A DNA stretch of 32,168 nucleotides, from positions 1 through 32,168 of IMG/VR virus record IMGVR_UViG_3300017776_000084; one strand, 5' to 3'. Shown one piece after another: positions 3,765 to 31,653 of this stretch. Both the position numbers and the translations under genes were made by a program. The notes under the pieces were generated by a model. It worked only from the letters and a program-made list of their open reading frames with translations, did not search any database and was not told the origin of the DNA. Each line of letters begins with the position of its first letter. Positions within the stretch are counted from its first letter, which is position 1. This stretch comes from a virus.

Positions 3765-4133
3765 ATGAAAGAAAAATCAATCGTTTTTGATATTGACGAC
3801 ACAATCTGTTTTCCTGATCATTCTAAAAAAGATAGCTATGAAAAGTATGGGTTAGCCAAACCCAACCTTCCTCTTATTGAAAAGATGCAGCAGATGGCTG
3901 ATGATGGTTGGTACATTACTCTTTCTTCTGCTAGAAGAATGCTAACGCATAACGGAGATGTTGAAAAGATCATTGCAGATATTGGCATTATAACTACTTC
4001 TTGGTTATCTCGTCATGACGTTCCTTATAATGAAATTCATTTTGGTAAACCTTATGCTAGTACATATTATGTTGATGATAAGTCAATGACGCTTGACCAA
4101 TTTAAAGATTGGAATTACAATGAAGAAGATTAA
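3765..4133 (+). CDS. HAD-superfamily phosphatase
   Basis: ATG 3765, four bases after the previous stop, is preferred over an upstream in-frame start at 3747 that would overlap. The 122-residue protein shows HAD motif I (D9-I-D11-D12-T13), a motif II-like TLSSARR with the Ser/Thr nucleophile-side residue, and motif III/IV-like sequence ending in YYVDDKSM. There is no cap domain, as in the small capsule-type HAD phosphatases often found beside sugar nucleotidyltransferases. It likely dephosphorylates a sugar or polyol phosphate in the pathway that makes the donor for the glycosyltransferase. The substrate is unknown. It overlaps the next gene by 14 bases. Confidence 0.75.
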   Translation: MKEKSIVFDIDDTICFPDHSKKDSYEKYGLAKPNLPLIEKMQQMADDGWYITLSSARRMLTHNGDVEKIIADIGIITTSWLSRHDVPYNEIHFGKPYASTYYVDDKSMTLDQFKDWNYNEED

Positions 4134-5622
4134 TCTTATTATCCCTGCGGCGGGGGAGGCAACTCGCTTAAAGCCACTTTCAAACAACATGTCTAAAATC
4201 ATGGTAAGGGTTAACGGTAAACCCTGCCTTGATTACATTATAGAGCATGCAAGAAAGCACGCAGATATTCAAGAGGTTGTTATTGTTGACGGTAAGTTTG
4301 ATGATGTTCGCGAGTATTGCTCTAAGAAATATCCAGACATTAAGTTCGTAAAGCAAAAGACTCTTAACGGTCCCCGCCCTGCCATTGCTCTTGGCTTTGG
4401 TGAAATTGAAGTTTCCCGACCCACAGTTGTATGGCTGGGTGATGCAATCATCTTAACCGAAAACATGCCTCTTGGTTCAGACTTTCTGTTATGCAAACAG
4501 GTTGATAACCATTCTTCTTGGTGCATGTGGAACGGTAGTGATTATTTTGATAAGCCTGATAAAAACATTGAAAAGGCAATGGCATTGGTTGGTTTGTATT
4601 CCTTTAAGAATGGTAAATTGGCCGCTCAAGCATTTGACGAGTCGGATGACTATGATATCTCTAACGCTCTTAAAGGATACGAAAAACTTAGTAACGATTT
4701 TGTATTTGCAAATCATCAAACTTCTGAGTGGTATGACATTGGTACTCTAAGTGTTTATCACGAAACTTGTGCTAAGCTTCTTAAACTTAAAAGTCGTGCG
4801 TTTAATAACATTGCGTTTAACGATGATCTAGGTACCGTTACCAAGACTCCTGATTATAAATCCAATCATAGTGTAGAAACTTTAAATGCTGAGCGGTTGT
4901 GGTACAACTCAATCACGCCAGAGCAAAGCATGTTTGTTCCTAGAATCCTTCCGCATAAAACGGATTTAATCATGTCATATGAATCTGGTTCACTGCTTTC
5001 AGATCTTATGCAATATGAAAATCTTTCAGAAGCCAACTGGTCTTTTATTATGGACAAGTTGTTTAGGATTAAGTTTAATTACTTTTCCTCTCCTATTTCT
5101 GAAGATAAAGATACAACTGATCGCTTTCAAAATCTTTCTAAAAACATTTGGATTAAAAAGGCTGAAGACCGTCTTGCTGATGTGGCGCTTAAACCTAAAG
5201 AAGTAACCACACTAATGAATATAGCATCTACCATTCAGGATAGCGTTACTGGTGTAGCGGTTCATCATGGTGATTTTCATTTTGGTAATATACTTTACAA
5301 TCATTACACAAATCAGTTTAAATTCATTGATCCAAGAGGTAATTACGGCGGAGAAATTGGTTGCATTGGAGATAGCCTTTATGACTGGTGTAAGCTCGCC
5401 CATGATGTTTACTATGGATACAGTGCTATTGTTTCCAACACCTCTCAAAACGAAACTGTAAAGAAGGTGTTTATTGAAAAGCTTTGTGAGTATAAGTTGC
5501 CCGTTGAATTAATTCTAAACGGCGGCATTCTTTTACTTGCAACGTGCATTCCTTTGCATTACGATGATCCTGAAAGACAGTGGAGAATGTTAAGAATTGT
5601 TAAAAATCAGTTGAATAATTAA
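4120..5622 (+). CDS. Nucleotidyltransferase-kinase fusion (NTP-transferase domain plus APH/choline-kinase-like domain)
   Basis: ATG 4120 (MKKINLIIPA) places the nucleotidyltransferase strand at the N-terminus; an ATG 27 bases upstream would add a non-family extension. Residues 1 to about 220 form a sugar-phosphate or choline-phosphate nucleotidylyltransferase: AAGEATRLKPLS at 10-21 (GxGxRL loop), KPCLDYIIEHA, and WLGDAI at 105-110 with the metal-binding Asp. Residues 260-500 are an aminoglycoside-phosphotransferase/choline-kinase-type domain: HHGDFHFGN at 382-390 (Brenner motif with D385 and N390) and FIDPRG at 402-407 (metal Asp404). One protein could thus phosphorylate a small alcohol or sugar and activate it as an NDP (or CDP) derivative. 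Similar fusions occur in capsule loci and LicC/LicA-type systems. The context suggests donor supply for the glycosyltransferase. The substrate cannot be told. Confidence 0.75.
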   Translation: MKKINLIIPAAGEATRLKPLSNNMSKIMVRVNGKPCLDYIIEHARKHADIQEVVIVDGKFDDVREYCSKKYPDIKFVKQKTLNGPRPAIALGFGEIEVSRPTVVWLGDAIILTENMPLGSDFLLCKQVDNHSSWCMWNGSDYFDKPDKNIEKAMALVGLYSFKNGKLAAQAFDESDDYDISNALKGYEKLSNDFVFANHQTSEWYDIGTLSVYHETCAKLLKLKSRAFNNIAFNDDLGTVTKTPDYKSNHSVETLNAERLWYNSITPEQSMFVPRILPHKTDLIMSYESGSLLSDLMQYENLSEANWSFIMDKLFRIKFNYFSSPISEDKDTTDRFQNLSKNIWIKKAEDRLADVALKPKEVTTLMNIASTIQDSVTGVAVHHGDFHFGNILYNHYTNQFKFIDPRGNYGGEIGCIGDSLYDWCKLAHDVYYGYSAIVSNTSQNETVKKVFIEKLCEYKLPVELILNGGILLLATCIPLHYDDPERQWRMLRIVKNQLNN

Positions 5623-9769: not shown

Positions 9770-9777
9770 TATAAATA
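9770..9777 (+). promoter_or_regulatory. T4-type late promoter box (first of two)
   Basis: An exact TATAAATA lies in the 49-base gap after the helicase gene, 16 bases before a second copy. This is the -10 element read by the gp55-type late sigma factor in T4-like phages. Predicted start is about 9783. Confidence 0.6.
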
Positions 9778-9785
9778 GTAATGTC

Positions 9786-9793
9786 TATAAATA
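9786..9793 (+). promoter_or_regulatory. T4-type late promoter box (second of two)
   Basis: An exact TATAAATA ends six bases before the ATG at 9800. A late start about six bases past the box would fall at or next to the ATG, giving an almost leaderless late transcript. Confidence 0.65.
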
Positions 9794-9799
9794 CTATCC

Positions 9800-11353
9800 A
9801 TGAGCACAAGCAACTTTAAAGATTTCATTAAAGAAGATATTTCAACAGGTTCACTTGATAAAGCCACCTTCTTAATTGCAAAATATCTCAAACGTAAAAC
9901 TGGATATTCATTTTTCCAGCTTCCAGGCATAGAGAAATTTTCAGGTGGTTCATCAGGTGGTGGATCTGGTATTCGATTGTTTTCTGGCAAAGGTAATATT
10001 AGTATTCGATTCAACTGGAAATCCAGTGGTCCTACTGCATCAAGCCTTTCTTCTATTGACATTTGGCTCAATAATAAGCAGCCTTTTTATCTCGAGTTTG
10101 AGAAAACAACTGGTCTAGTAAAAACCATTCCACTTGTTGCCAACATTATTAATGCTGGCGGCCCAACCAATAAAACCGTTTATACTTTACCCGATGGGGT
10201 ATCACTTAATGAACACATGGAGCCATCCTTCAGGTTTGTTCATCTTAACGAGGCCAAGGCTGCTATAGGCGACGTTGGTGGAATGTTTGACGACATTGTT
10301 GAAATGATGACCGACTCTGGCTTTTCAAAGGGGATGGTTTATAAAACATACAAAAGTGCTGGGGTTAAGGTTTTTGATGCGATTGTCGGTTTACATCCGA
10401 AGCTCATGCAAAAGAAAGGAACCGCATTTAAGTTTGTAGGTAAACCTGCAGACCTTGCTAAGGTTAAGAATTCAAAAGATGATATTCTACTTACAATCGG
10501 TTGTACAAAAGGAACTGTTAAGCGTGGATCTGCTGGTGAAAAATATGCTGATAACAGTAACGCCGATGCTCTTATGGCAGATCGTGACCGCATCAGCTTT
10601 GAGAAGCAACTTGAAGATTTAGAAAACCTTCTCAAACTAACTGTTAACGGCGCAGCCAATGCAATCTTTATTGCTGGTCGAGGTGGTGTTGGTAAAACAC
10701 ACACAACCGAAAAGGTTCTTGCTGACATGGGTCTGCGAGACGGATCAGGATACTTTAAGAACACTGGTAGTACAACTGCTGCAGGTATGTATTCTCTACT
10801 CTTTCGTTACAAGAACGATATCATTCTTTTTGATGATAGTGACGATGCCTTTAAGGATCAGGAAAGTAGAAACCTTCTCAAGGCTGCAACTGATACCAAA
10901 AAGATTCGGAAGCTCGTTTGGAACAAAATGGGTAAAAACGTTGTTGATCCTGAAGAGGATATCACGGACGAAGAAATGCTTGACCAAAATCTCATTCCTC
11001 GTTATTTTGAGTTTACTGGTAAGATCATTTTTATTACCAACCTTAAAATGCAAAAGCTGGATCCAGACGGTGCGCTAAGAACACGCGCATACATCATTGA
11101 CATTGATCCAACTGAAGCAGAGATTTATGACTTTATGGATCAGATTGTTGATAAGATTAAATTAGAAGACGGTCTGACCCTTGATTTGACAAAAAGGAAA
11201 AAGGTTGTGGATCTTCTTCGTAAAGGTAAGAGCAAGCAAGAACCAAACCTTCGTAAACTCAGCCGGGGACTGAATATGGCTGCAGGTGCTCTTTCTGCTG
11301 GGGTTGCTGTAAAAGACGGTGATCTCCGGCGAATGATTGAAACTTACGCGTAA
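9800..11353 (+). CDS. AAA-type ATPase with capsid-targeting-like N-terminus
   Basis: The 517-residue protein begins MSTSNFKDFIKED, similar to the leader of T4 internal head proteins with a possible prohead-protease site I-K-E. Residues 40-60 are a Gly/Ser-rich loop (SGGSSGGGSG), followed by a beta-rich domain. The C-terminal half is a P-loop ATPase: Walker A GRGGVGKT at 293-300, Walker B IILFDD at 341-346, a sensor-like IIFITN, and RTRAYIIDIDP in the arginine-finger area. Its cellular target is unknown. A double late promoter precedes it and a terminator follows. I infer a late, head-associated motor or remodelling ATPase; it is not one of the named T4 ATPases I can recognise. Confidence 0.7.
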   Translation: MSTSNFKDFIKEDISTGSLDKATFLIAKYLKRKTGYSFFQLPGIEKFSGGSSGGGSGIRLFSGKGNISIRFNWKSSGPTASSLSSIDIWLNNKQPFYLEFEKTTGLVKTIPLVANIINAGGPTNKTVYTLPDGVSLNEHMEPSFRFVHLNEAKAAIGDVGGMFDDIVEMMTDSGFSKGMVYKTYKSAGVKVFDAIVGLHPKLMQKKGTAFKFVGKPADLAKVKNSKDDILLTIGCTKGTVKRGSAGEKYADNSNADALMADRDRISFEKQLEDLENLLKLTVNGAANAIFIAGRGGVGKTHTTEKVLADMGLRDGSGYFKNTGSTTAAGMYSLLFRYKNDIILFDDSDDAFKDQESRNLLKAATDTKKIRKLVWNKMGKNVVDPEEDITDEEMLDQNLIPRYFEFTGKIIFITNLKMQKLDPDGALRTRAYIIDIDPTEAEIYDFMDQIVDKIKLEDGLTLDLTKRKKVVDLLRKGKSKQEPNLRKLSRGLNMAAGALSAGVAVKDGDLRRMIETYA

Positions 11354-11442: not shown

Positions 11443-11892
11443 ATGATAGACAAAACTTTACGAATATATGGCTGCAAAGACAAGCCAGACCTGAGAGACG
11501 ATATTCGTGAAGCGTCTAAGTTTTTCATTAACAAGCTGATTCCTCGAAAAAGGATACTTCACATTGCTGTTAAAAGAAGAAAGAATCTTATCAAGAACAG
11601 CGGAACATACGGGGAGTGTTGGCACCTTGATGAACCAAACTGTTTTGAAATATTGGTCGACGCAGACCTTTCTAAAAAGCAAACTCTTACAACCTTGGCT
11701 CATGAATTTGTTCACGTAAAACAATTCTGCCGTAGAGAACTTAAATTCGGTCACAAGATTGATACTTGGTGTGGTAAAAAGTATTACCACGGTGCAGCTT
11801 ATGAATCCCTGCCATGGGAAAAGGAAGCAACCCGACTGGAGACGGTTTTATACGAAGAATTCAAGGTGCATAAAAATAACAATAAAGTATAA
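11443..11892 (+). CDS. Small HExxH zinc metallopeptidase-like protein
   Basis: The 149-residue protein has the zinc-peptidase motif H87-E-F-V-H91 in TTLAHEFVHVKQF, with PWEKEA at 125-130 downstream offering the third-ligand or helix Glu usual in SprT/gluzincin-like phage peptidases. It is basic overall and has no signal peptide or membrane segment, so it should act in the cytoplasm of the host or in the virion. It has its own host-type promoter and lies between two late genes, while a terminator before it isolates it from the ATPase gene. The target is unknown. Its stop overlaps the next gene's late promoter box. Confidence 0.8.
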   Translation: MIDKTLRIYGCKDKPDLRDDIREASKFFINKLIPRKRILHIAVKRRKNLIKNSGTYGECWHLDEPNCFEILVDADLSKKQTLTTLAHEFVHVKQFCRRELKFGHKIDTWCGKKYYHGAAYESLPWEKEATRLETVLYEEFKVHKNNNKV

Positions 11893-11900: not shown

Positions 11901-12995
11901 ATGAAAAGATTTAAGGAATTTTTATCAGAAGCTTATTCTTTCTTTCCAAAATCGGTCGAAGAAATAGAAACTGAGTTAAAGGATTTTTCTACTGATAGCC
12001 AAAATGAAATTAAAGCGCTGTTTACTTTCCTTAGGACAAAGTATCCAAGCGTTTATACTCCTATCAATATTGATAAAAAGAAACAGAATAACGTTAATGT
12101 TACACGCGAACTTCAATCGGAAACCGAGATATCTGATATTGTTTCTGGAGCCGGTATTAAAAAAATTAAGCTCAAGTTCGGTAATGGATCATCCGGTAAT
12201 CGCGGTGTAAATAATCGTGGTAATATATTTGAAGGCGCGTTTGCAAATGCCATAACTACATGGTGGAACGGCGAAGAAGTTGAAAATAAAAGTATGCTTG
12301 CCGCTATTAAAGACCTTGATAAAACATATAAGCTTAGTGATTCAAGTAAGCTAGATGTTAATGTTGTTGGTGGTGAAAACACCAAACGCCCTCTTAAATT
12401 TGGTCCAACCATTATTTTAGATAACCCAAAAGGATCTGGATTCGATATTGGTAAATCAGTTACAGATGTTACACTAGTTACTGATAATCGCGAAATTTAT
12501 CTCAGCCTTAAGTTAGGTACAACTACTACATTCTTCAACGTGGGTGTAAGAAGGATTCTAACTCCAGATCAGATTAAATCCAGTAAGATTACTAATAAAG
12601 ACGGCTTAAATCTCCTTAGCATCTTTGGCATTGACCCTGTCAAATTTTCAGAAGTATTTAATGGTACCAGTAAGGGTAGTGTTGATACTAGAGCAAAGGT
12701 GGATTCCAACAAAATAGAAAAGTTGTTGCAATCAGGAATAGGTTATAACTATCACATCATCCACAAAATGTCAAAGGGAATTCTTTCAAAAGAAATGAAT
12801 CAATCTGCAATGAAGAAAGCAGCAAAGATCGCTGGTGGCGTTACAGTTTATTATGGTGGTAAAACCGGTCGAGGTAAACGCGTTGATGTAGAATTCAAAT
12901 CAGCTTCATATAAATTTAAAATCAACATTAGAGATACCCAAGGTAAAGATGGATACCCGACTCGTATGATGTGTGATTTTACTACAATTAAGTGA
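11901..12995 (+). CDS. Late protein with capsid-targeting-like leader and nuclease-like core
   Basis: The 364-residue protein begins MKRFKEFLSEAYS, which matches the T4 internal-protein leader form with a cleavage site L-S-E before Ala11. The middle shows a pattern consistent with a PD-(D/E)XK fold: NRGNIFEGAF with Glu111, then SVTDVTLVTDNREIYLSLK with Asp189 and Lys204 on adjacent strands. The following FFNVGVRR and a Lys/Arg-rich C-terminus (GKTGRGKRVDVEF) fit DNA binding. Catalysis is not proven; the acidic residue before Lys is replaced by Ser202. I infer a head-packaged nuclease-like or DNA-binding protein. An alternative is an unrelated structural protein. Confidence 0.55.
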   Translation: MKRFKEFLSEAYSFFPKSVEEIETELKDFSTDSQNEIKALFTFLRTKYPSVYTPINIDKKKQNNVNVTRELQSETEISDIVSGAGIKKIKLKFGNGSSGNRGVNNRGNIFEGAFANAITTWWNGEEVENKSMLAAIKDLDKTYKLSDSSKLDVNVVGGENTKRPLKFGPTIILDNPKGSGFDIGKSVTDVTLVTDNREIYLSLKLGTTTTFFNVGVRRILTPDQIKSSKITNKDGLNLLSIFGIDPVKFSEVFNGTSKGSVDTRAKVDSNKIEKLLQSGIGYNYHIIHKMSKGILSKEMNQSAMKKAAKIAGGVTVYYGGKTGRGKRVDVEFKSASYKFKINIRDTQGKDGYPTRMMCDFTTIK

Positions 12996-14738: not shown

Positions 14739-16550
14739 ATGCAACCCTATACAGATCAAGAGAAAGAAGGTAAAAAGATTAGAACCTTTTCCGCAGGCGT
14801 GGAAAATGAAGAACTTATTTGGCATAGGGATAAGACGCACCGTGAAGTAACGGTTGCTGAAGGAACAGGTTGGTTCTTTCAACTAGATGAAAGTGTTCCT
14901 TTTGAATTAAAGAAGGGCCAATCACTTTCAATTCCCAAGATGGAATGGCATCGGTTGTTTAAGAAAGGCGATTCAGACCTTGTACTTGAAATTGTTGAAT
15001 CATATATACCTTCTTTTAAAAACATTGTTGAAGCTCCCAAACTTTCTAAAGGTTATGGTGCAGGTTTAGGCGACTCAACCAAAGACAAGCGTCGGGCCCA
15101 GTTTAATAAGCAGGCTAAAATGGATGACGACGATCCCGCTGCTTATAAACCTGCACCTGGAGATGCAAGAGGTAAAACCAAACCAAGTAAATATACAAAG
15201 GCCTATAAGGACATGTTTGGTGAGAAGGTTGAATACTATTCAATGCCAGAACTCAAAAAGCAGTTGAAAAAAGAATATGGCTCAGAGGCTTCTTCTCTCA
15301 AGATTGTAAAGGTTAAAGGCCGGGGTCGAACCCAGAGTGTATCTATCCAAACACCATCCGGTCAAGAACTAGATAGATATAATAATGTACCTGGGTTGGG
15401 CTACACACTTGCTGAAGACACAGAAGACACAAAAGGAATAGGCACTGACGGACTGGCAAAAAATTACAAAAAGATTACTCCAGGCCAAAGCGTTGAAGAA
15501 AAACTGGACCCTAAAAAAGACGATGCAGGGGATTATATCAAAGACTTTATGAAGTCAGATGCTCCTCAGTTTAAAGGGAAGTCTAAAGAAAAGATACGCC
15601 AAATGGCCGTTGCCGCTTACCTTGACGATAAGGATGCGCTAACAGAAAAAACCATTAAAGGTCTTGAAAAGAAAGCTGACGAATCTGGTGTTGCATACGA
15701 CATCTTAAAGAAAGTATACGACCGAGGAATGGCTGCTTGGAGAACTGGCCACCGCCCAGGGACTACTCCACAGCAATGGGCTTTTGCTCGCGTTAATTCC
15801 TTTCTCACTGGCGGTACAACTCAAAAGACAACCGATGCTGACCTTTGGAAAAAACACAAAGGTAAAAAGGAATCTGTTGAGTTGGAAGAAAAGGAAATCT
15901 CTGAGGCGAAGCACATGAAGTTTAATAAAAGAACTTTGCTCCGCACTATGAAAAAGCCTGAAGGGGTTATTCAAACAAGCGATGGTGGTCAGTATACAAT
16001 TTATCGACCAAAGCAAACCAAACAGGGTTTCAACACCAGTGATTTGTGGCAAGATAAATCCATCATTGCTTTACCTATTCCGGCTTGGCCAGGTGGAGAA
16101 GTTGAGATTAATTACGATGATATCACTCAATACAGCGAGACGTATCACGAAGAATCACTTAAGCCAACTCCAGCGTTAAAACAAAAACTGATAGAGGTTG
16201 CCGGACTTACTTCCGCAACCGCGGAAAAGATTTTGGCTCTGCCGCAACCAATGCTGACCACAGTTATTAACCAACTTCTTACAGCTGAGGTTCACCATGA
16301 AGATACATCCAACAATGAAGTTGATCTCATTCTTGAACGAGGTAAAACATATATCTTAAAGCAAGATAGAGATGATTACGACAGGGGTGTATTGGTAACC
16401 ATGAATGAAGACGGCAGCTATGAAATGGCTTATTGGGTTGGAGATAAATATGAACCTTACCCTATTGAAATGCTTGTTGACGGAAAGTCCATAAAGAAGG
16501 ATGGACGAATTGCAAAGTTTAATTACCACCCTACAGTACCTAAAACATGA
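14739..16550 (+). CDS. Cupin-led multi-domain late protein, possible polyprotein
   Basis: The 603-residue protein is a chain of small modules. Residues 1-90 look like a cupin: ELIWHRDKTHREVTVAEG and later PKMEWHRLF supply the two conserved strands with His. IVE98-A ends this module. Residues 100-165 contain GKTKPSKYTKAYKDMFGE; 165-222 is a basic alpha/beta module; LAE226-D follows. Residues 250-372 match a DUF5824-like domain (WRTGHRPGTTPQQWAFARVN). ISE389-A comes next, then a module at 391-470 that is paralogous to part of the protein encoded at 21973-23046, a helix-hairpin-helix-like stretch (480-515), and an SH3-like end (532-595). The [I/L]-x-E sites fall between modules, as if processed by the prohead protease. 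It has no leader peptide of the MKSF type. The 4-base overlap with the next gene suggests coupling. Confidence 0.6.
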   Translation: MQPYTDQEKEGKKIRTFSAGVENEELIWHRDKTHREVTVAEGTGWFFQLDESVPFELKKGQSLSIPKMEWHRLFKKGDSDLVLEIVESYIPSFKNIVEAPKLSKGYGAGLGDSTKDKRRAQFNKQAKMDDDDPAAYKPAPGDARGKTKPSKYTKAYKDMFGEKVEYYSMPELKKQLKKEYGSEASSLKIVKVKGRGRTQSVSIQTPSGQELDRYNNVPGLGYTLAEDTEDTKGIGTDGLAKNYKKITPGQSVEEKLDPKKDDAGDYIKDFMKSDAPQFKGKSKEKIRQMAVAAYLDDKDALTEKTIKGLEKKADESGVAYDILKKVYDRGMAAWRTGHRPGTTPQQWAFARVNSFLTGGTTQKTTDADLWKKHKGKKESVELEEKEISEAKHMKFNKRTLLRTMKKPEGVIQTSDGGQYTIYRPKQTKQGFNTSDLWQDKSIIALPIPAWPGGEVEINYDDITQYSETYHEESLKPTPALKQKLIEVAGLTSATAEKILALPQPMLTTVINQLLTAEVHHEDTSNNEVDLILERGKTYILKQDRDDYDRGVLVTMNEDGSYEMAYWVGDKYEPYPIEMLVDGKSIKKDGRIAKFNYHPTVPKT

Positions 16551-17323
16551 AATCATTTAGTTCTTATATTGAAGATATTGCGAGGTTAATTCAAGAAGCT
16601 GAGACACCGTGTCCTCCTGCAACCCAGGATCTTGCAATTAATACAAAGAATCGCGATGCAACAATAAAGAACTATAACTATGGCCCGTTGAATGTATCAG
16701 AGCCAGGGACGTATTGGAAAGACATTGCTAAGTATTGGAAAACAACAGAGAAAGCTGCAAAGGCATCACTTTGCGCTAACTGCGTTGCGTTTGATATATC
16801 CCCAAGAATGCTCGAATGTATGCCGGGTGTAACATCTGATGAAGATGGCGTTCTAGGTTATTGCTGGATGCATCATTTCAAGTGTCACTCTGCCAGAGCC
16901 TGTCATACATGGGCTAAAGGTGGTCCTATTGATAAGGATGATGTTTCTCATGAATGGGCTAAGCGCGCTGGTGAACCTTATTATAAAGAAGCCACGGAAA
17001 GAATTCCTCGCGAAAAAGGTCAACACACTGGTTCGTCTTCTCACTCTGATTTATATACAGACGAAGATCCTGAAGGAACAATTCACGGGCTAGGTTTTAA
17101 AGATCCTGAGACTGCAAAGAAAGGAATTGCTATTATAGATAAAGCTGATAGAACCCACGCTCATAAAGTTCAAGCTACACTGGTTATGCAGCAAAGAGCA
17201 AAGGTTGCTATTGAAAGAACCAAGGATCCCGAAAAGAAAGCAAACCTTAAAGGTGCTTATGATATTTGGACAGACCATTTAGAGAAGCTGAAAAAAATTA
17301 CTCAGCAGAAAAACCAATCTTAA
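16547..17323 (+). CDS. HiPIP-like Cys-rich late protein with capsid-targeting-like leader
   Basis: The 258-residue protein begins MKSFSSYIEDIARLIQEAE, a leader with a candidate cleavage site I-Q-E17 before Ala18. Residues 40-125 hold C76-A-N-C79, C91, C106, then C113 and C119 in GYCWMHHFKCHSARACHTW. The CANC start and the 2-11-14 spacing resemble high-potential iron-sulfur proteins, although a zinc site is also possible. The C-terminal region (about 150-258) begins HTGSSSHSDLYTDE, continues GLGFKDPETAKKGIAIIDK and is a helical repeat-like module rich in Lys. Start ATG overlaps the previous stop. I infer a metal-binding, head-associated protein; redox activity is untested. Confidence 0.6.
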   Translation: MKSFSSYIEDIARLIQEAETPCPPATQDLAINTKNRDATIKNYNYGPLNVSEPGTYWKDIAKYWKTTEKAAKASLCANCVAFDISPRMLECMPGVTSDEDGVLGYCWMHHFKCHSARACHTWAKGGPIDKDDVSHEWAKRAGEPYYKEATERIPREKGQHTGSSSHSDLYTDEDPEGTIHGLGFKDPETAKKGIAIIDKADRTHAHKVQATLVMQQRAKVAIERTKDPEKKANLKGAYDIWTDHLEKLKKITQQKNQS

Positions 17324-18449: not shown

Positions 18450-19865
18450 ATGGAATCATTCAAAACTTATTCTTATTTAGATGAAGAGGCTATCAAGCCT
18501 GACACGTTAAAGCTATTGGTTTTAACTTCTGCTAAAGAAGGCGAAGAACCTACAATCAATAAACTTGAAGATATTTGCGCTAAGAAAAAAATTAAACTGT
18601 ATAGAATTGTATCGGATAAAGCATATGCGTCCAAAAAGGACGAGCAAAAAGAAACACTAGTCATTCATAACTACGATGGCCAAGGGGAAAGTTTGGAAAT
18701 TGACCGCAATGAAGATGTGGTATGTATAGCTCGGAGAACGGTGGTTACAAATAGAAACGCCGCCGTTTTACATTCAATGTTGGCAGATCACGGAGTGTTT
18801 TGTATTAACTCCCCTCAAAGTGTAAAGACCGCAAGTAATAAATTTAGTTCTTACATTAACTTTGTCAACGATAACGTTCCCACTCCCAAAACGTGTTTGG
18901 TTACAGATATTGAATACATCGACAAAGGTATTGAAGAAGTTGGTGGAAAGTTCCCTCTTATCTTAAAGTTTACTGAAGGTCACGGCGGTAAGGGAGTTAT
19001 GAAACTTGAAACCAGGGAAAGCCTGGTGTCAGTTATACAAGCAATTCAAGCTGAGCCTGAAAGCAACGTTGAATTAATACTTCAAGAGCTTAAAAAGATT
19101 AAAGACGATAGAAGAATTCTTGTATTAAACGGTCAAGTTATTGCGGCAAGTAAACGTAAAAAGATGGCTGATGACTTTCGTACAAACGTTTCTCTGGGTT
19201 CTGACGTAGAGCCACACAAGCCGAACGATAAAGAAATGGAACTCGCGGTGAGAGCTGCTAAGTCTGTGGGTTGTTATTACTGCGGCGTTGATATTATTCA
19301 AGTCGATGGTGAGTATTTTGTTTTGGAGGTTAACCCTTCACCAGGGTCTAAATCAAATTACTTTGATGTGGAAAAACAAAAAGTTATAAACGGAACTGCA
19401 CTGGTTCGTAAACTTGTTGACAGTACACTTGAGAAAGAGAACTGGACTTACGAGACCAAAGAGGTCGGCGTTATAGAATACATGAAGATTTTAGACGACG
19501 ACTTTAAACTCATGACCGCTAAAATGGATACGGGTAATGGTTCGGTAAACTCTATTGGTGTTACTGATTTAAAGATAAAAGGAAACGTTGCTGAGTTTTA
19601 TATTCAAGACACCAAACACAAACTTACAAAAGAGATATTACCTAAGACTTCCGTTATTAAAGTACGAGGTGATAAAGGCAATCCTGAAAGACGGCCGGTT
19701 GTAATGTTTGATGTTAAGCTGGGCAACAGGGTTTATAGAGATGTTAAGTTTTCCTTAGCCGATAGAAATAATATGGACCACCCGATTTTGGTATCTGCTA
19801 AATTTATGGCCGCTTGCAAGTTAAGCGTTAATCCTAATAAAGAGTTTGTTTGCTGTATGCCATAA
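18450..19865 (+). CDS. ATP-grasp (RimK-like) and retropepsin-like (RimB-like) fusion
   Basis: The 471-residue protein begins MESFKTYSYLDEEA, a head-leader-like start with L-D-E12. Residues about 90-325 form an ATP-grasp ligase: LILKFTEGHGGKGVMKL at 170-186 (Gly-rich ATP loop, Lys173), LILQELKKIKDDRRI near 209, and VDGEYFVLEVNPSPG with the metal-binding Glu293 and Asn295. RimK-type enzymes add amino acids, often Glu, to protein C-termini. Residues about 340-471 match the RimB-like retropepsin family: AKMDTGNGS with Asp360-Thr-Gly, ERRPVVMFDV, and FSLADRNNMDHPILVSAKF. Paired ligase and protease in one chain suggests attachment and removal of a peptide tag. It is a late gene; the substrate is unknown. 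Confidence 0.75.
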   Translation: MESFKTYSYLDEEAIKPDTLKLLVLTSAKEGEEPTINKLEDICAKKKIKLYRIVSDKAYASKKDEQKETLVIHNYDGQGESLEIDRNEDVVCIARRTVVTNRNAAVLHSMLADHGVFCINSPQSVKTASNKFSSYINFVNDNVPTPKTCLVTDIEYIDKGIEEVGGKFPLILKFTEGHGGKGVMKLETRESLVSVIQAIQAEPESNVELILQELKKIKDDRRILVLNGQVIAASKRKKMADDFRTNVSLGSDVEPHKPNDKEMELAVRAAKSVGCYYCGVDIIQVDGEYFVLEVNPSPGSKSNYFDVEKQKVINGTALVRKLVDSTLEKENWTYETKEVGVIEYMKILDDDFKLMTAKMDTGNGSVNSIGVTDLKIKGNVAEFYIQDTKHKLTKEILPKTSVIKVRGDKGNPERRPVVMFDVKLGNRVYRDVKFSLADRNNMDHPILVSAKFMAACKLSVNPNKEFVCCMP

Positions 19866-19880: not shown

Positions 19881-21116
19881 ATGAAATCATTTAAGACATA
19901 TATCACCGAAGCTTCGGGAAAGAATACCCACATGACGCATATTGAAGATGCGGTATTATACGGTGGAGTTAAAGGAGCAAAGGAAGCAATTACCGCGCTG
20001 CGTTCGTTAAGAGACATGCTTGCAGGAAATGCAAAGAGCAGCAGTGATGTTACTGTCAAATGGGATGGTGCTCCTGCAGTGTTTGCTGGTATTGATCCAA
20101 CCGATGGCCAATTCTTTGTTGCTAAAAAAGGTATCTTTAATAAAGATCCAAAGGTATACAAATCTGAAGCAGATGTTAAAGCTGATACCAGTGGCGATCT
20201 GCAAGCAAAGTTGATTGTTGCTTTTAATGAACTTTCCAAACTTGGAATTAAAGGTGTCTTGCAAGGTGACATGATGTATACCAAATCGGATCTTAAACCA
20301 CAAAAGATCAACGGTGTTCCTTATATTACTTTCCAGCCAAACACGATTGTTTATGCTGTTCCTGCCAATACTCCTGGTGGTAAAAAGATTAAAAGTTCAA
20401 AGATGGGTATCGTATTTCACACATCCTATTCAGGTACTTCATTCGAGAATATGAAGGCTTCGTTTAACGTTGACATTAGTTCCTTGAAACCTACTTCAAC
20501 TGTTTGGTATCAAGATGCACGAACTCCTGACCTTAGCGGTACTGCATTAATGGATGCAGACGAAACCAAAGAAGTTACAGCCGCCCTTTCAAAGGCTGGT
20601 AAGATTTTCCAAAAGATTGCGGGCTCAACCCTTAAAGCGATTGAAGCTGATCCACAACTTGCACAAACCCTTGAAACTTATAACAACACGTTTGTTCGTA
20701 AAACTGAAGAGTTACCTGCTGATTCGAAGAAACACGTTGATGGTCTTATAAAGTGGTCCACAGAGCGCTATAAAAAAGAGCGCACTCAACGTAAAAGCGA
20801 AAGAGGCAAAGAAGGTGTGAATAAACGAGAAGAAGAATTTATGAAGTTCTTCTCCAAAGAAAATAAGACTAACCTTGCTTTGATCTACGACCTTCAGAAG
20901 GCTATTGTTGCCGCCAAGCTTATCATCATTAAGAAGCTTGACTCTCTTAAAAAGATTAATACATTTATTCGTACCAAGAACGGGTTTAAAGTTACGGGTC
21001 AAGAAGGGTTTGTTGCAATCGACAAAACAGGCGGGGGCGCGGTTAAACTCGTTGATCGTCTCGAGTTCTCTACAAACAATTTCAGTCCTGACGTACTTAA
21101 AGGTTGGGACCATTAA
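19881..21116 (+). CDS. Ligase-like nucleotidyltransferase (DUF6267-like) with capsid-targeting-like leader
   Basis: The 411-residue protein starts MKSFKTYITEASGKN, the closest match here to the T4 internal-protein leader, with a site I-T-E10 before Ala11. A nucleotidyltransferase pattern follows: K60-W-D-G63 (motif I KxDG with candidate adenylated Lys), FFVAKKGIFN, GVLQGDMMY, KMGIVFHTSY, and C-terminal EGFVAIDKTGG then AVKLVDRLEF in the places of motifs IV and V. This is the layout of ATP-dependent DNA and RNA ligases. From memory it matches a family annotated DUF6267 in marine phages. A ligase or end-adenylating enzyme carried in the head is the inference; the substrate is unknown. Confidence 0.7.
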   Translation: MKSFKTYITEASGKNTHMTHIEDAVLYGGVKGAKEAITALRSLRDMLAGNAKSSSDVTVKWDGAPAVFAGIDPTDGQFFVAKKGIFNKDPKVYKSEADVKADTSGDLQAKLIVAFNELSKLGIKGVLQGDMMYTKSDLKPQKINGVPYITFQPNTIVYAVPANTPGGKKIKSSKMGIVFHTSYSGTSFENMKASFNVDISSLKPTSTVWYQDARTPDLSGTALMDADETKEVTAALSKAGKIFQKIAGSTLKAIEADPQLAQTLETYNNTFVRKTEELPADSKKHVDGLIKWSTERYKKERTQRKSERGKEGVNKREEEFMKFFSKENKTNLALIYDLQKAIVAAKLIIIKKLDSLKKINTFIRTKNGFKVTGQEGFVAIDKTGGGAVKLVDRLEFSTNNFSPDVLKGWDH

Positions 21117-21121
21117 ACCAC

Positions 21122-21129
21122 TATAAATA
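21122..21129 (+). promoter_or_regulatory. T4-type late promoter box
   Basis: An exact TATAAATA lies in the 23-base gap before ATG 21140. The predicted start of about 21135 gives a five-base leader. Confidence 0.62.
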
Positions 21130-21955: not shown

Positions 21956-21970
21956 TAAATAGTATAAATC
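21954..21970 (+). promoter_or_regulatory. Possible overlapping late promoter boxes
   Basis: GATAAATA (21954-21961) and TATAAATC (21963-21970) are each one base off TATAAATA and lie just before ATG 21973. The first overlaps the stop of the previous gene. One or both may serve the next gene. Confidence 0.4.
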
Positions 21971-21972
21971 AT

Positions 21973-23046
21973 ATGAAAACATTAAAAGAAATACTTAACG
22001 AATCTGCCCACGACTCGTCAATAGAAAAGCAAAACGATAACATTGATGCGAAAGCTGATGAAGGTTCTTCTAAAGATCTTAAGGCTATTTCTGCAGGAAT
22101 GTTTACTAAAAGAACTTTGATCCGCTCCATGAAGCACTCTGAAGGTGTTATTCAATTGGCCAGTGGTAAACAATATACAATTTTTAATCCAAAGTCTGAA
22201 GATCAGGACACTGAAGGAATGTTCCAAGATGATATGGTTTTTGCAATTGATGCTGATGGTAACGAAGTTAAAGTTGAATACAAAGAAATCACTTCTTACA
22301 ACGAAACATACCACGAAGATGAAGCTGGTGCTCCTCGAAGAATGACTTACGATGATGCACACCAGCCCAAAACTAAAATGGAGCTGATGGCTGCCGTAAA
22401 GAGAGAACTTCGTAGCATGAAGGTTGCTGATGTAAAAGCTTCTTACCAGTATATTAAAGCTGCCCATTGTAATACTAGAGAAAGTATGCACGGAATGGGA
22501 ACAAAGAAGGATACGTTAATGGCAATGATGAAGGATCTTAAAGGCATGAAAGCAAGTGCCCTTAGAGCTTCTTACGAGTACATTAAAGCTTCTCATTGCG
22601 GACCTAGAGAAGGTGCTCACGAAGATGAGATGGTTAATGCTGGTGCTCATCGCGATGATCTGAAACATCCTAAGCCACAGCCAGTGATGGCAAGCCACTG
22701 CACAGAAGAAACCGAAATTACTGAAGCGATTAACTTTAGTAAAGTCCCTGATGATCAATTGATTAAATGGATTAAAGTACTCGGATTGGCTAAAAACAAA
22801 CCTAAGGCACCTTGGACCGATTATCCACAAGATATGGCTGCTGCTGAAAAAGAAGCTAAAAAACGTAGGCTTACGTTTGAAGCTGTTGAGCTTGAAGAGA
22901 TGAAGACCAAAGATGACGACCTTGCGGTTATGATCTACGACTACATCGGCGCAGACACTGAAGGACTTCCTTTGAAGACGCTTATCATGCAGGCCGTTGG
23001 TAAATACTTTGGCTCTCAAAAAGTTGACGGCCCAGTTGGAGGTTAA
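21973..23046 (+). CDS. Multi-domain late protein with capsid-targeting-like leader and helical repeats
   Basis: ATG 21973 (MKTLKEILNESAHD) was chosen over an upstream TTG because it gives a head-leader-like start with L-N-E10 before Ser11. Residues about 41-116 are a module paralogous to residues 391-470 of the protein encoded at 14739-16550: both have FTKRTL or FNKRTL, then EGVIQ, QYTI, an acidic insert, YNETYHE or YSETYHE. Residues 136-171 and 180-214 are two copies of a helical unit ending in Y-I-K-A-x-H-C. IT-E251-A and LEE309 mark further possible cuts before C-terminal modules. The 357-residue protein has no enzyme motif. The gene is late, and a stable hairpin follows it. Confidence 0.6.
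   Translation: MKTLKEILNESAHDSSIEKQNDNIDAKADEGSSKDLKAISAGMFTKRTLIRSMKHSEGVIQLASGKQYTIFNPKSEDQDTEGMFQDDMVFAIDADGNEVKVEYKEITSYNETYHEDEAGAPRRMTYDDAHQPKTKMELMAAVKRELRSMKVADVKASYQYIKAAHCNTRESMHGMGTKKDTLMAMMKDLKGMKASALRASYEYIKASHCGPREGAHEDEMVNAGAHRDDLKHPKPQPVMASHCTEETEITEAINFSKVPDDQLIKWIKVLGLAKNKPKAPWTDYPQDMAAAEKEAKKRRLTFEAVELEEMKTKDDDLAVMIYDYIGADTEGLPLKTLIMQAVGKYFGSQKVDGPVGG
22378..22614 (+). repeat. Two-copy helical repeat in the gene at 21973
   Basis: Units encode residues 136-171 and 180-214. Each has L-M-A, a KxL-xxMK core and a C-terminal A-S-Y-x-Y-I-K-A-x-H-C-x-x-R-E. The match is clear in protein and weaker in DNA, indicating an older duplication than that in the gene at 13572. Confidence 0.75.
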
Positions 23047-30981: not shown

Positions 30982-31653
30982 ATGCAAAACGAAGATAACA
31001 AATCAACTGAGGCTATGGGATTGGAAGATATCTTTAGCGGAGGAAAGCAAAATAACTTTTCCGGCGAATACGGATCCCTTATGGATTTCTATTTGTTGGG
31101 TTCTATTGGCGAAGCTTCCGAATACATTGAATGGTTTCACAAGATTCGCAACGCAAGACCAACCGATATAATTAACATTCATATTAACTGCCCTGGCGGT
31201 AACCTATTTACAACTGTCCAATTTCTTCAAGTACTTAGCGAGTGTAATGCACATATTAATATGAATGTTACTGGAGCTTGTATGAGTGCTGCAACTTTAA
31301 TCTTTCTTCAAGGTGATGACTTTGTAATCAACGAACACAGCGCCTTTCTCTTTCATAACTACAGCGGCGGGATGATTGGTAAAGGTGGAGAGATGTATTC
31401 AAATGTGATACACGATCGTAAGTGGTCTGAAAAGCTTTTCCGTTCTCAATACGAAGACTTCCTTACAGCAGAAGAGATTAGCAACCTTGTTGATGATAAA
31501 GATATTTGGATGGATGCCAGCACTGTGGTTGAACGACTCCAAGCGAGGAGCGACGCTCGTGATGAAGAACTTGAAGTTGAAAAGGATGGTGTAAAAGAAA
31601 CCCCTCCTAAGAAGAAGACTACCAAGAAGAAGACTACAAAGAAAACCAAATAA
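30982..31653 (+). CDS. ClpP-like serine protease with Lys-rich tail
   Basis: The 223-residue protein has the ClpP fold signature: INCPGGNLFTTVQF (oxyanion loop), TGACMSAATLIF with the nucleophile Ser102, and AFLFHNYSGG with His125. The acidic third residue is less clear. The last 14-15 residues repeat KKTTKKK, an unusual disordered basic tail that may bind nucleic acid or membranes. T4-like marine phages often carry ClpP-like genes. The bacterial ClpP partners with Clp ATPases; no such ATPase gene is seen here, so it may use the host's or act alone. A weak AAGGA lies upstream of ATG 30982. Confidence 0.85.
   Translation: MQNEDNKSTEAMGLEDIFSGGKQNNFSGEYGSLMDFYLLGSIGEASEYIEWFHKIRNARPTDIINIHINCPGGNLFTTVQFLQVLSECNAHINMNVTGACMSAATLIFLQGDDFVINEHSAFLFHNYSGGMIGKGGEMYSNVIHDRKWSEKLFRSQYEDFLTAEEISNLVDDKDIWMDASTVVERLQARSDARDEELEVEKDGVKETPPKKKTTKKKTTKKTK

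What the first reader, a model, noticed from the sequence alone, without database searches (positions are those of the whole stretch)
18450..19865. RimK-like ligase fused to a RimB-like retropepsin, with a head-type leader
An ATP-grasp domain (Lys173, Glu293, Asn295) and an aspartic-protease-like domain (Asp360-Thr-Gly) occur in one chain. In bacteria RimK and RimB are separate proteins acting on ribosomal protein S6 tails. A phage fusion, late-expressed and perhaps packaged, could modify host translation at entry or process virion proteins.
Basis: partly seen in the sequence, partly recalled or inferred. Interest (0 to 1): 0.65.

Follow-up and report, generated by a model that had tools for sequence, protein, structure and literature searches.

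The report
Capsid-targeted RimK–RimB fusion enzyme
A gene of a T4-like virus from a metagenome joins an enzyme that adds amino acids (probably glutamates) to protein tails with a protease of the kind that trims them, and carries the short tag such viruses use to load proteins into their heads, so it is probably injected with the DNA to modify a host protein at the start of infection.

Summary
Structure models confirm both folds. The pairing itself is not new: marine phage RimK with a C-terminal DUF785 was reported in 2008, bacteria have the reverse-order RimBK hybrid, and haloarchaea have the same order.

What appears undescribed, and makes this worth following, is the leader. Residues 1-12 fit the experimentally mapped T4 capsid-targeting sequence. 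Such leaders occur in 29 of 44 non-redundant phage homologues against 1 of 61 cellular RimK/RimB proteins. The leader persists across unrelated gene neighbourhoods, and in an isolate that lacks the protease half. Fourteen of 23 carrier records searched have a T4-type prohead protease. A full-length homologue (YerA41 g112) was found by mass spectrometry in purified virions. All phage retropepsins carry DTGN; the 40 cellular ones compared carry DTGA or DSGA. Most poly-glutamate-contacting residues known from RimK and RloA are kept.

Best reading: a head-packaged, injected writer/trimmer of poly-glutamate tails. Ribosomal protein S6 is one candidate target and is unproven. The protein fails the S6-ligase and RimB equivalog cut-offs.

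The parts
18450..19865 (+). RimK-RimB (K-B) fusion gene, 471 aa
   Evidence: Open frame with ATG; Pfam PF08443 + PF05618; 72-89% identical relatives in four further viral contigs in the first scan
18450..18485 (+). Leader, residues 1-12 (MESFKTYSYLDE): T4 capsid-targeting-type sequence with an L-x-E prohead-protease site after E12 (cleavage inferred)
   Evidence: Fits the T4 rule (aromatic 4 and 7, L/I-x-E); 29/44 phage vs 1/61 cellular homologues; disordered in the model, residues 1-12 pLDDT <50
18507..19445 (+). RimK-type ATP-grasp ligase domain, residues 20-332
   Evidence: TIGR00768 161.7 bits vs cut-off 143.4; model vs RimK 7qyr Z 30.0, rmsd 2.6 A over 285 residues; K131, K173, R222, D281, E293, N295 invariant
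19452..19862 (+). RimB/DUF785-type retropepsin domain, residues 335-471
   Evidence: PF05618 over cut-off; domain model vs RloA 9g58 Z 17.5, rmsd 1.7 A over 121 residues; profile hits 9g59, 2pma, 9g58
19527..19538 (+). Catalytic DTGN motif, residues 360-363 (phage-specific; DTGA or DSGA in cells)
   Evidence: DTGN in 93/93 K-B proteins against D[T/S]GA in 40/40 cellular RimB domains compared
9800..11353 (+). Neighbouring leader gene (MSTSNFKDFIKE), AAA-type NTPase
   Evidence: Leader features; PF13191 below its curated cut-off; phrog_1250; TATAAATA at 9770 and 9786
11901..12995 (+). Neighbouring leader gene (MKRFKEFLSEA), phrog_8438, function unknown
   Evidence: TATAAATA at 11888
16547..17323 (+). 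Neighbouring leader gene (MKSFSSYIED...LIQE); the same domain occurs inside polyprotein forms of K-B (L016, L023, L027)
   Evidence: by eye
19881..21116 (+). Neighbouring leader gene (MKSFKTYITEA), DUF6267
   Evidence: same neighbour in L009, L010, L012
21140..21955 (+). Neighbouring gene (MKSFKQFKEE), NMNAT-like nucleotidyltransferase, fused to K-B in L016, L020, L023, L027
   Evidence: PF01467, phrog_395/3041; polyproteins; TATAAATA at 21122
21973..23046 (+). Neighbouring leader gene (MKTLKEILNESA, start at the internal ATG)
   Evidence: TATAAAT at 21963
9770..9793 (+). Two TATAAATA sites (T4 late-promoter consensus) just before the leader-gene cluster; others at 11888, 13539, 21122 and 24524
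   Evidence: 6 exact sites, all on the + strand, against a mean of 2.1 on both strands in shuffles

Best explanation
This is a T4-like phage effector that is loaded into the head and injected. The N-terminal leader docks the newly made protein into the prohead core. The prohead protease gp21 clips the leader at L-D-E12, and the mature enzyme travels with the DNA into the next cell. There the RimK-type domain uses ATP to add amino acids, most likely glutamates, to the C-terminal carboxyl of a target protein. The tethered RimB-type retropepsin, as a dimer, trims the added chain and/or tunes the ligase. The likely purpose is early modification of a host protein, with a translation factor such as S6 the leading but unproven candidate; T4 Alt is the precedent for an injected modifying enzyme. 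Shown here: domains, folds, conserved catalytic residues, leader statistics, gp21/gp23 in many carriers, and a homologue in virions (literature). Inferred: cleavage, injection, donor amino acid, target and benefit.
For: Domains and folds: Pfam, TIGR00768 over cut-off, RimK Z 30.0, RloA Z 17.5. Catalysis: K131, K173, D281, E293, N295 and DTG invariant. Poly-Glu contacts: the RimK positions R64, R189 and N262 correspond to R95, R222 and N295 (52/52); S7 and S14 correspond mostly to S/T (contacts from PMC10092738; mapping). The RloA contacts K46, R114 and R137 (PMC12239564) appear to correspond to K358 (43/55), R415 (55/55) and R439 (50/55), with matching R-R spacing of 23-24 (mapped by me from the printed alignment). 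Packaging: leader 29/44 phage vs 1/61 cellular, Fisher 9e-14; leader kept in the ligase-only Melnitz protein and in different neighbourhoods; gp21 found in 14 and gp23 in 16 of 23 carriers searched; YerA41 g112 found by LC-MS/MS in purified particles. Both leader features occur in 6 of 12 genes between 9800 and 23046 and in 0 of the 26 other window genes.
Against: The S6-ligase equivalog (NF007764, 78.5 vs 331 bits) and the RimB equivalog (NF052261, 25.9 vs 200) are not met. RimK, LysX and ArgX tie on structure (Z 29.4-30.0), so the acceptor is open. RimK residue R8 and loop residues H215/R216 are mostly not kept. YerA41's own protein lacks a clear T4-type leader, and its virion list includes many replication enzymes, so carry-over is possible. 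15 of 44 phage homologues did not match the loose leader regex. Little et al. saw no S6 glutamylation by the bacterial RimBK hybrid.
Confidence: 0.6

Rival explanations
1. The enzyme acts inside the infected cell during assembly, on a phage head or core protein. It adds glutamate tails to scaffold or internal peptides (or makes free poly-Glu kept in the head), and the leader simply brings it to the prohead core.
For: Leader, late-type promoter sites around it, and co-location with other leader genes in the window clade. RimK can make free poly-alpha-glutamate and RimB stimulates this.
Against: K-B also sits among replication genes (between regA and DNA polymerase in Mosig) and is middle-expressed in YerA41. 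T4 itself is not known to need such an enzyme.
Confidence: 0.2
2. It is an ordinary intracellular auxiliary RimK acting on host translation during infection; the leader is incidental, and the YerA41 virion detection is carry-over.
For: Monier et al. 2008 proposed host-translation modification. Leaderless phage RimK homologues exist (S-RIM8). The YerA41 particle list contains many cytoplasmic enzymes.
Against: The leader fits the mutationally mapped T4 rule, is conserved across about 30%-identical homologues, is nearly absent in cells, and occurs with a T4-type prohead protease in 14 of 23 carriers searched.
Confidence: 0.15
3. The ligase works on a small molecule, cofactor or modified base rather than a protein tail (LysX, MptN, CofF or DNA-hypermodification style).
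For: LysX and ArgX are structural ties. MptN, LysX and CofF models score better than the S6-ligase model on the window protein. YerA41 DNA carries a large thymidine modification (abstract of PMC9023294).
Against: The tethered retropepsin with kept poly-Glu contacts implies a peptide substrate. Every equivalog cut-off for these families is missed. The D-F-R-[ST]-N loop matches E. coli RimK.
Confidence: 0.12

Closest known systems
Marine phage RimK homologues with C-terminal DUF785 (Monier, Claverie & Ogata 2008, PMC2530865)
   Same: Same domain pair and order, T4-like phage context, RimK beside regA in one contig
   Different: DUF785 was then of unknown function; in the passages read here no leader, no packaging evidence and no DTGN signature are reported
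RimBK hybrid of Desulfotalea psychrophila and others (Little et al. 2025, PMC11957791)
   Same: RimK and RimB in one chain; the hybrid's protease is active on poly-Glu-tailed RpsF
   Different: RimB is N-terminal and cellular; the bacterial RimB domains compared here carry D[T/S]GA; no capsid leader; S6 ligation was not observed
RimA-RimB-RimK system of Pseudomonas (PMC4741518, PMC7343187)
   Same: Ligase adds and retropepsin trims glutamates; the two interact
   Different: Separate chromosomal genes, S6 substrate shown, cyclic-di-GMP/RimA control
RloA retropepsins of Pseudomonas (PMC12239564)
   Same: Closest solved fold (9g58, Z 17.5) and apparently conserved poly-Glu contacts
   Different: Secreted, stand-alone, disulfide-bonded
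T4 internal head proteins IPI-III and Alt (PMC9026906)
   Same: Capsid-targeting leader logic, gp21 maturation, injection with DNA
   Different: Cargo is a restriction inhibitor or ADP-ribosyltransferase, not an amino-acid ligase
Haloarchaeal RimK-retropepsin fusions (Haladaptatus, L174 and L176)
   Same: Same K-B order, PF08443 + PF05618
   Different: DTGA motif, no leader, divergent protease domain

Membership tests
RimK family alpha-L-glutamate ligase (TIGR00768) | Curated family score and ATP-grasp catalytic residues | tested here: met
   161.7 bits vs cut-off 143.4; K131, K173, D281, E293, N295 invariant
RimK family alpha-L-glutamate ligase (TIGR00768) | RimK fold | tested here: met
   pLDDT 87; RimK 7qyr_A Z 30.0, rmsd 2.6 A, 285 residues. 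LysX and ArgX tie, so the fold alone does not separate the subfamilies
S6-specific ligase RimK (NF007764) | Equivalog cut-off | tested here: not met
   78.5 vs 331 bits
S6-specific ligase RimK (NF007764) | Glutamylation of ribosomal protein S6 | not testable with these tools
   Needs a biochemical assay
PF05618 RimB/RloA retropepsin family | Family score, retropepsin fold and DTG | tested here: met
   43.2 vs cut-off 27; RloA Z 17.5; DTG 55/55
RimB proper (NF052261) | Equivalog cut-off, DTGA, stand-alone protein | tested here: not met
   25.9 vs 200 bits; DTGN; fused
Bacterial RimBK hybrid | RimB domain N-terminal to RimK | tested here: not met
   Order is K-B in all viral homologues
T4-type capsid-targeted internal protein | N-terminal leader with aromatic residues 4 and 7 and an L/I-x-E cleavage site | tested here: met
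   MESFKTYSYLDE; 29/44 homologues
T4-type capsid-targeted internal protein | Phage encodes a gp21-type prohead protease | tested here: inconclusive
   Found in relatives (L015 record 2.5e-33; Mosig 9.1e-32); the window is a 32-kb fragment and gp21 was not sought in it
T4-type capsid-targeted internal protein | Present in virions | tested here: inconclusive
   Homologue YerA41 g112 present, but that protein lacks a T4-type leader; the window phage itself is untested
T4-type capsid-targeted internal protein | Leader cleaved by gp21 and protein injected | not testable with these tools
   Needs mass spectrometry and an ejection assay

The most novel reading that the evidence does not exclude
A widespread, previously unrecognised class of virion-delivered amino-acid ligases: T4-like phages inject a self-limiting 'write and trim' poly-glutamylation enzyme that remodels a host protein before any phage gene is expressed. 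In some phages it is delivered as one unit of a packaged polyprotein, together with an NMNAT-like nucleotidyltransferase.
Probability: 0.4. Interest if true: 0.8.

Novelty: new variant of a known kind. Interest (0 to 1): 0.6.

Why it matters
If correct, phages deliver post-translational peptide-tail chemistry inside the virion, a modality beyond the ADP-ribosylation carried out by T4 Alt. It would give a function to phage RimK genes that have been annotated since 2008 without explanation. It would also offer a defined way to ask what S6 (or other) poly-glutamylation does in cells. The leader rule could further be used to list other injected proteins in marine and gut T4-like phages, for which host-takeover proteins are largely unknown.

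Tried and rejected
Fusion as an artefact of frame or assembly: rejected (intact frame, 52 aligned non-redundant homologues with the same order). Fusion as new in itself: rejected (haloarchaea). K-B as a cellular gene in Firmicutes MAGs: the two ~400-kb contigs also carry gp21 and gp23, so they look like T4-like phage contigs binned with bacteria. Derivation from bacterial RimBK: not supported; the B-domain tree puts all K-B on one side (97% local support, FastTree), while the K-domain tree leaves long branches unresolved and does not give a strict single clade. S6-tail test in plausible hosts: abandoned, since the window's host is unknown and the genomes reachable through loci were not known hosts. 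Iyer et al. 2009 on amidoligases is not held. Supplementary tables could not be read; the YerA41 main-text Table 3 was used instead. Leader enrichment in immediate gene neighbours across all loci is weak (10/72 against 24/354 far genes), so clustering is claimed only for the window.

Full report
WHAT IS THERE. The window is a 32,168-base IMG/VR viral record with T4-like genes: UvsX, DnaB-type helicase and ribonucleotide reductase. ORF 18450-19865 on the + strand starts with ATG and encodes 471 aa. Pfam finds RimK (PF08443) at residues 128-302, E 2.9e-33, and PF05618 at 339-467, E 4.6e-11, both over their curated cut-offs. An AlphaFold model made from 52 sequences has mean pLDDT 87 and pTM 0.81; the only stretch under pLDDT 50 is residues 1-12. 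The ligase half (20-332) aligns to Pseudomonas RimK 7qyr with Z 30.0 over 285 residues at 2.6 A; LysX and ArgX are ties. The C-terminal domain modelled alone (pLDDT 88.5) aligns to the Pseudomonas retropepsins RloA (9g58, Z 17.5) and RloA2 (9g59, Z 17.2) and to Legionella DUF785 (2pma, Z 17.2), far above viral retropepsins at Z 8-9.

CATALYTIC STATE. Across 55 non-redundant K-B proteins, K131, K173, R222, D281, E293, N295, D360, T361, G362, N363 and R415 are invariant. Mapped on E. coli RimK, ATP residues K100 and K141 and the Mg/Glu residues D248, E260 and N262 are kept. Of the residues seen to touch a poly-glutamate chain in RimK (S7, R8, S14, R64, S68, R189, N262; PMC10092738), R64, R189 and N262 are invariant, S7 and S14 become S/T in nearly all, and R8 and S68 are lost. 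In the retropepsin, the contacts shared by RloA and RimB (K46, R114, R137; PMC12239564) appear as K358 (43/55), R415 (55/55) and R439 (50/55); this mapping is mine, from the printed alignment and matching spacing. Both halves therefore look active, and poly-glutamate remains the most likely substrate. There is one consistent change: the catalytic motif reads DTGN in 93 of 93 K-B proteins, against DTGA or DSGA in all 40 cellular RimB domains compared, which suggests altered cleavage preference (inference).

HOW IT DIFFERS FROM CELLULAR SYSTEMS. Many of the cells found here have rimB directly upstream of rimK, or a RimB-first fusion. This agrees with Little et al. 2025, who showed that the Desulfotalea RimBK hybrid is proteolytically active but did not glutamylate the tested S6. 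All viral homologues are ligase-first. Haloarchaea also have ligase-first fusions, but with DTGA or DTGT and no leader. In a FastTree phylogeny of the protease domain all K-B proteins fall on one side (97% local support). In the ligase tree they stay apart from cellular RimK except for L094, a short contig with a phage-type leader, but some long branches are unresolved. Further K-B hits sit in bacterial or archaeal MAG contigs. For L091 and L093 the same contig carries gp21 and gp23, so these look like phage contigs binned with bacteria. NCBIfam puts the protein in the RimK family (161.7 vs 143.4 bits) but not in the S6-ligase, LysX, MptN, CofF or RimB equivalogs.

THE LEADER. T4 packages internal proteins through a 10-residue N-terminal sequence. 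Residues 4 and 7 direct targeting, 8 and 10 direct processing, and gp21 cuts after L/I-x-E (PMC9026906). IPII and IPIII begin MKTYQEFIAEA. Phage K-B proteins begin MENFKSFITEA, MEKFSEFITEA, MKPIKFNDYLTEA, MQVQPFKNYLEEA, MQKFTTYITES and so on. The window's MESFKTYSYLDEE keeps F4 and Y7 with the cut site moved by two residues. The leader is found in 29 of 44 non-redundant phage proteins and in 1 of 61 cellular RimK/RimB N-termini (Fisher 9e-14); that one (L094) has a phage-type leader on a 3-kb contig. A stricter pattern finds 27 of 44 and has no hit in 20,847 positions within the mature domains. The regexes were written after seeing the sequences, although they encode the published rule, and GTG or TTG starts were allowed. 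The leader is retained in Methylophilales phage Melnitz, which has only the ligase (MTQKFSQFITEE), and in Mosig, where the gene lies between regA-like and DNA polymerase genes rather than among head genes. Leaderless phage RimK genes also exist (S-RIM8).

PACKAGING EVIDENCE. A T4-type prohead protease was found in 14 of 23 carrier records searched, and gp23 in 16, including Mosig and YerA41. Several of the rest are partial contigs. The strongest external evidence is experimental. In Yersinia phage YerA41 the homologue (YerA41_066, 28% identical) corresponds by gene order to g112 'Ribosomal protein modification protein', marked as identified by LC-MS/MS in purified particles (PMC7354516, Table 3). 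Two cautions: that protein has no clear T4-type leader, and the particle list includes many replication enzymes, so carry-over cannot be excluded. In the window, genes between 9800 and 23046 form a block in which 6 of 12 carry both leader features, against 0 of 26 elsewhere (one-sided hypergeometric about 3e-4, computed by hand). Six exact T4 late-promoter-like TATAAATA sites all lie on the + strand, five of them within about 35 bp upstream of genes of this block. YerA41 g112 is middle-expressed, so late expression is not general.

POLYPROTEIN FORMS. In L016, L020, L023 (same protein in L024) and L027 the K-B unit follows an NMNAT-like nucleotidyltransferase in one chain; in all but L020 a domain found in window ORF 16547-17323 lies between, and internal leader-like motifs occur. 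In the window these pieces are separate leader genes. This fits a shared destination, the prohead core, with gp21 possibly separating the units; cleavage of these chains is untested.

MECHANISM. I propose that the leader puts the enzyme into the prohead, gp21 removes it, and the mature ligase-protease is injected. It then extends and trims a C-terminal glutamate tail on a host protein. S6 is the obvious candidate, by homology and because the T7 kinase phosphorylates S6 (as cited in PMC2530865), but nothing here tests it. Probabilities: enzyme identity 0.95; packaged in the head 0.75-0.8; acts on a protein tail in the new host 0.5; S6 the main target 0.25-0.3.

NOVELTY. The phage RimK-DUF785 fusion was reported in 2008, so the architecture alone is known. 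I found no description in the papers searched of the capsid-targeting leader on RimK proteins, of the DTGN subfamily, or of the polyprotein forms; most subscription papers were not searchable. I therefore rate it a new variant of a known kind.

Noticed in passing
L016:1779-5264, L020:902-3073, L023:5531-8671, L027:6891-9635: Single-chain polyproteins: NMNAT-like nucleotidyltransferase (TxGH motif), in L016/L023/L027 then the domain of window ORF 16547-17323, then K-B, then a C-terminal segment, with internal leader-like motifs such as MFREFMEA and FSNFLES.
   Followed up: partly
L028:9226-10194, L036:9436-10425, L084:9392-10411: A second stand-alone RimK-like gene lies directly after K-B; in L036 it has its own leader (MNKIKLFEEFIREE). 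The three form their own clade.
   Followed up: partly
L091 (410-kb contig) and L093 (400-kb contig): Contigs listed under Firmicutes and Erysipelotrichaceae genomes carry gp21, gp23 and K-B together: apparently T4-like jumbo phage contigs binned into bacterial species genomes.
   Followed up: partly
window 9770, 9786, 11888, 13539, 21122, 24524 (+): Exact TATAAATA sites (T4 late-promoter consensus), all on the + strand, mostly just upstream of leader genes.
   Followed up: partly
window 30982-31653: ClpP-like protease related to head maturation protease families (phrog_1827, phrog_1684), in a phage group that usually uses gp21.
   Followed up: no
window 11443-11892: Small putative zinc metallopeptidase (HEFVHVKQ motif) between two leader genes.
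   Followed up: no
window 4093-5622: Chain that looks like a sugar-nucleotide transferase joined to a phosphotransferase-like part (GVAVHHGDFHFGN); PHROGs list it as unknown function.
   Followed up: no
LR756504.1 557947-558285: A 636-kb uncultured phage record has a weak match to the retropepsin domain (E 1e-3).
   Followed up: no
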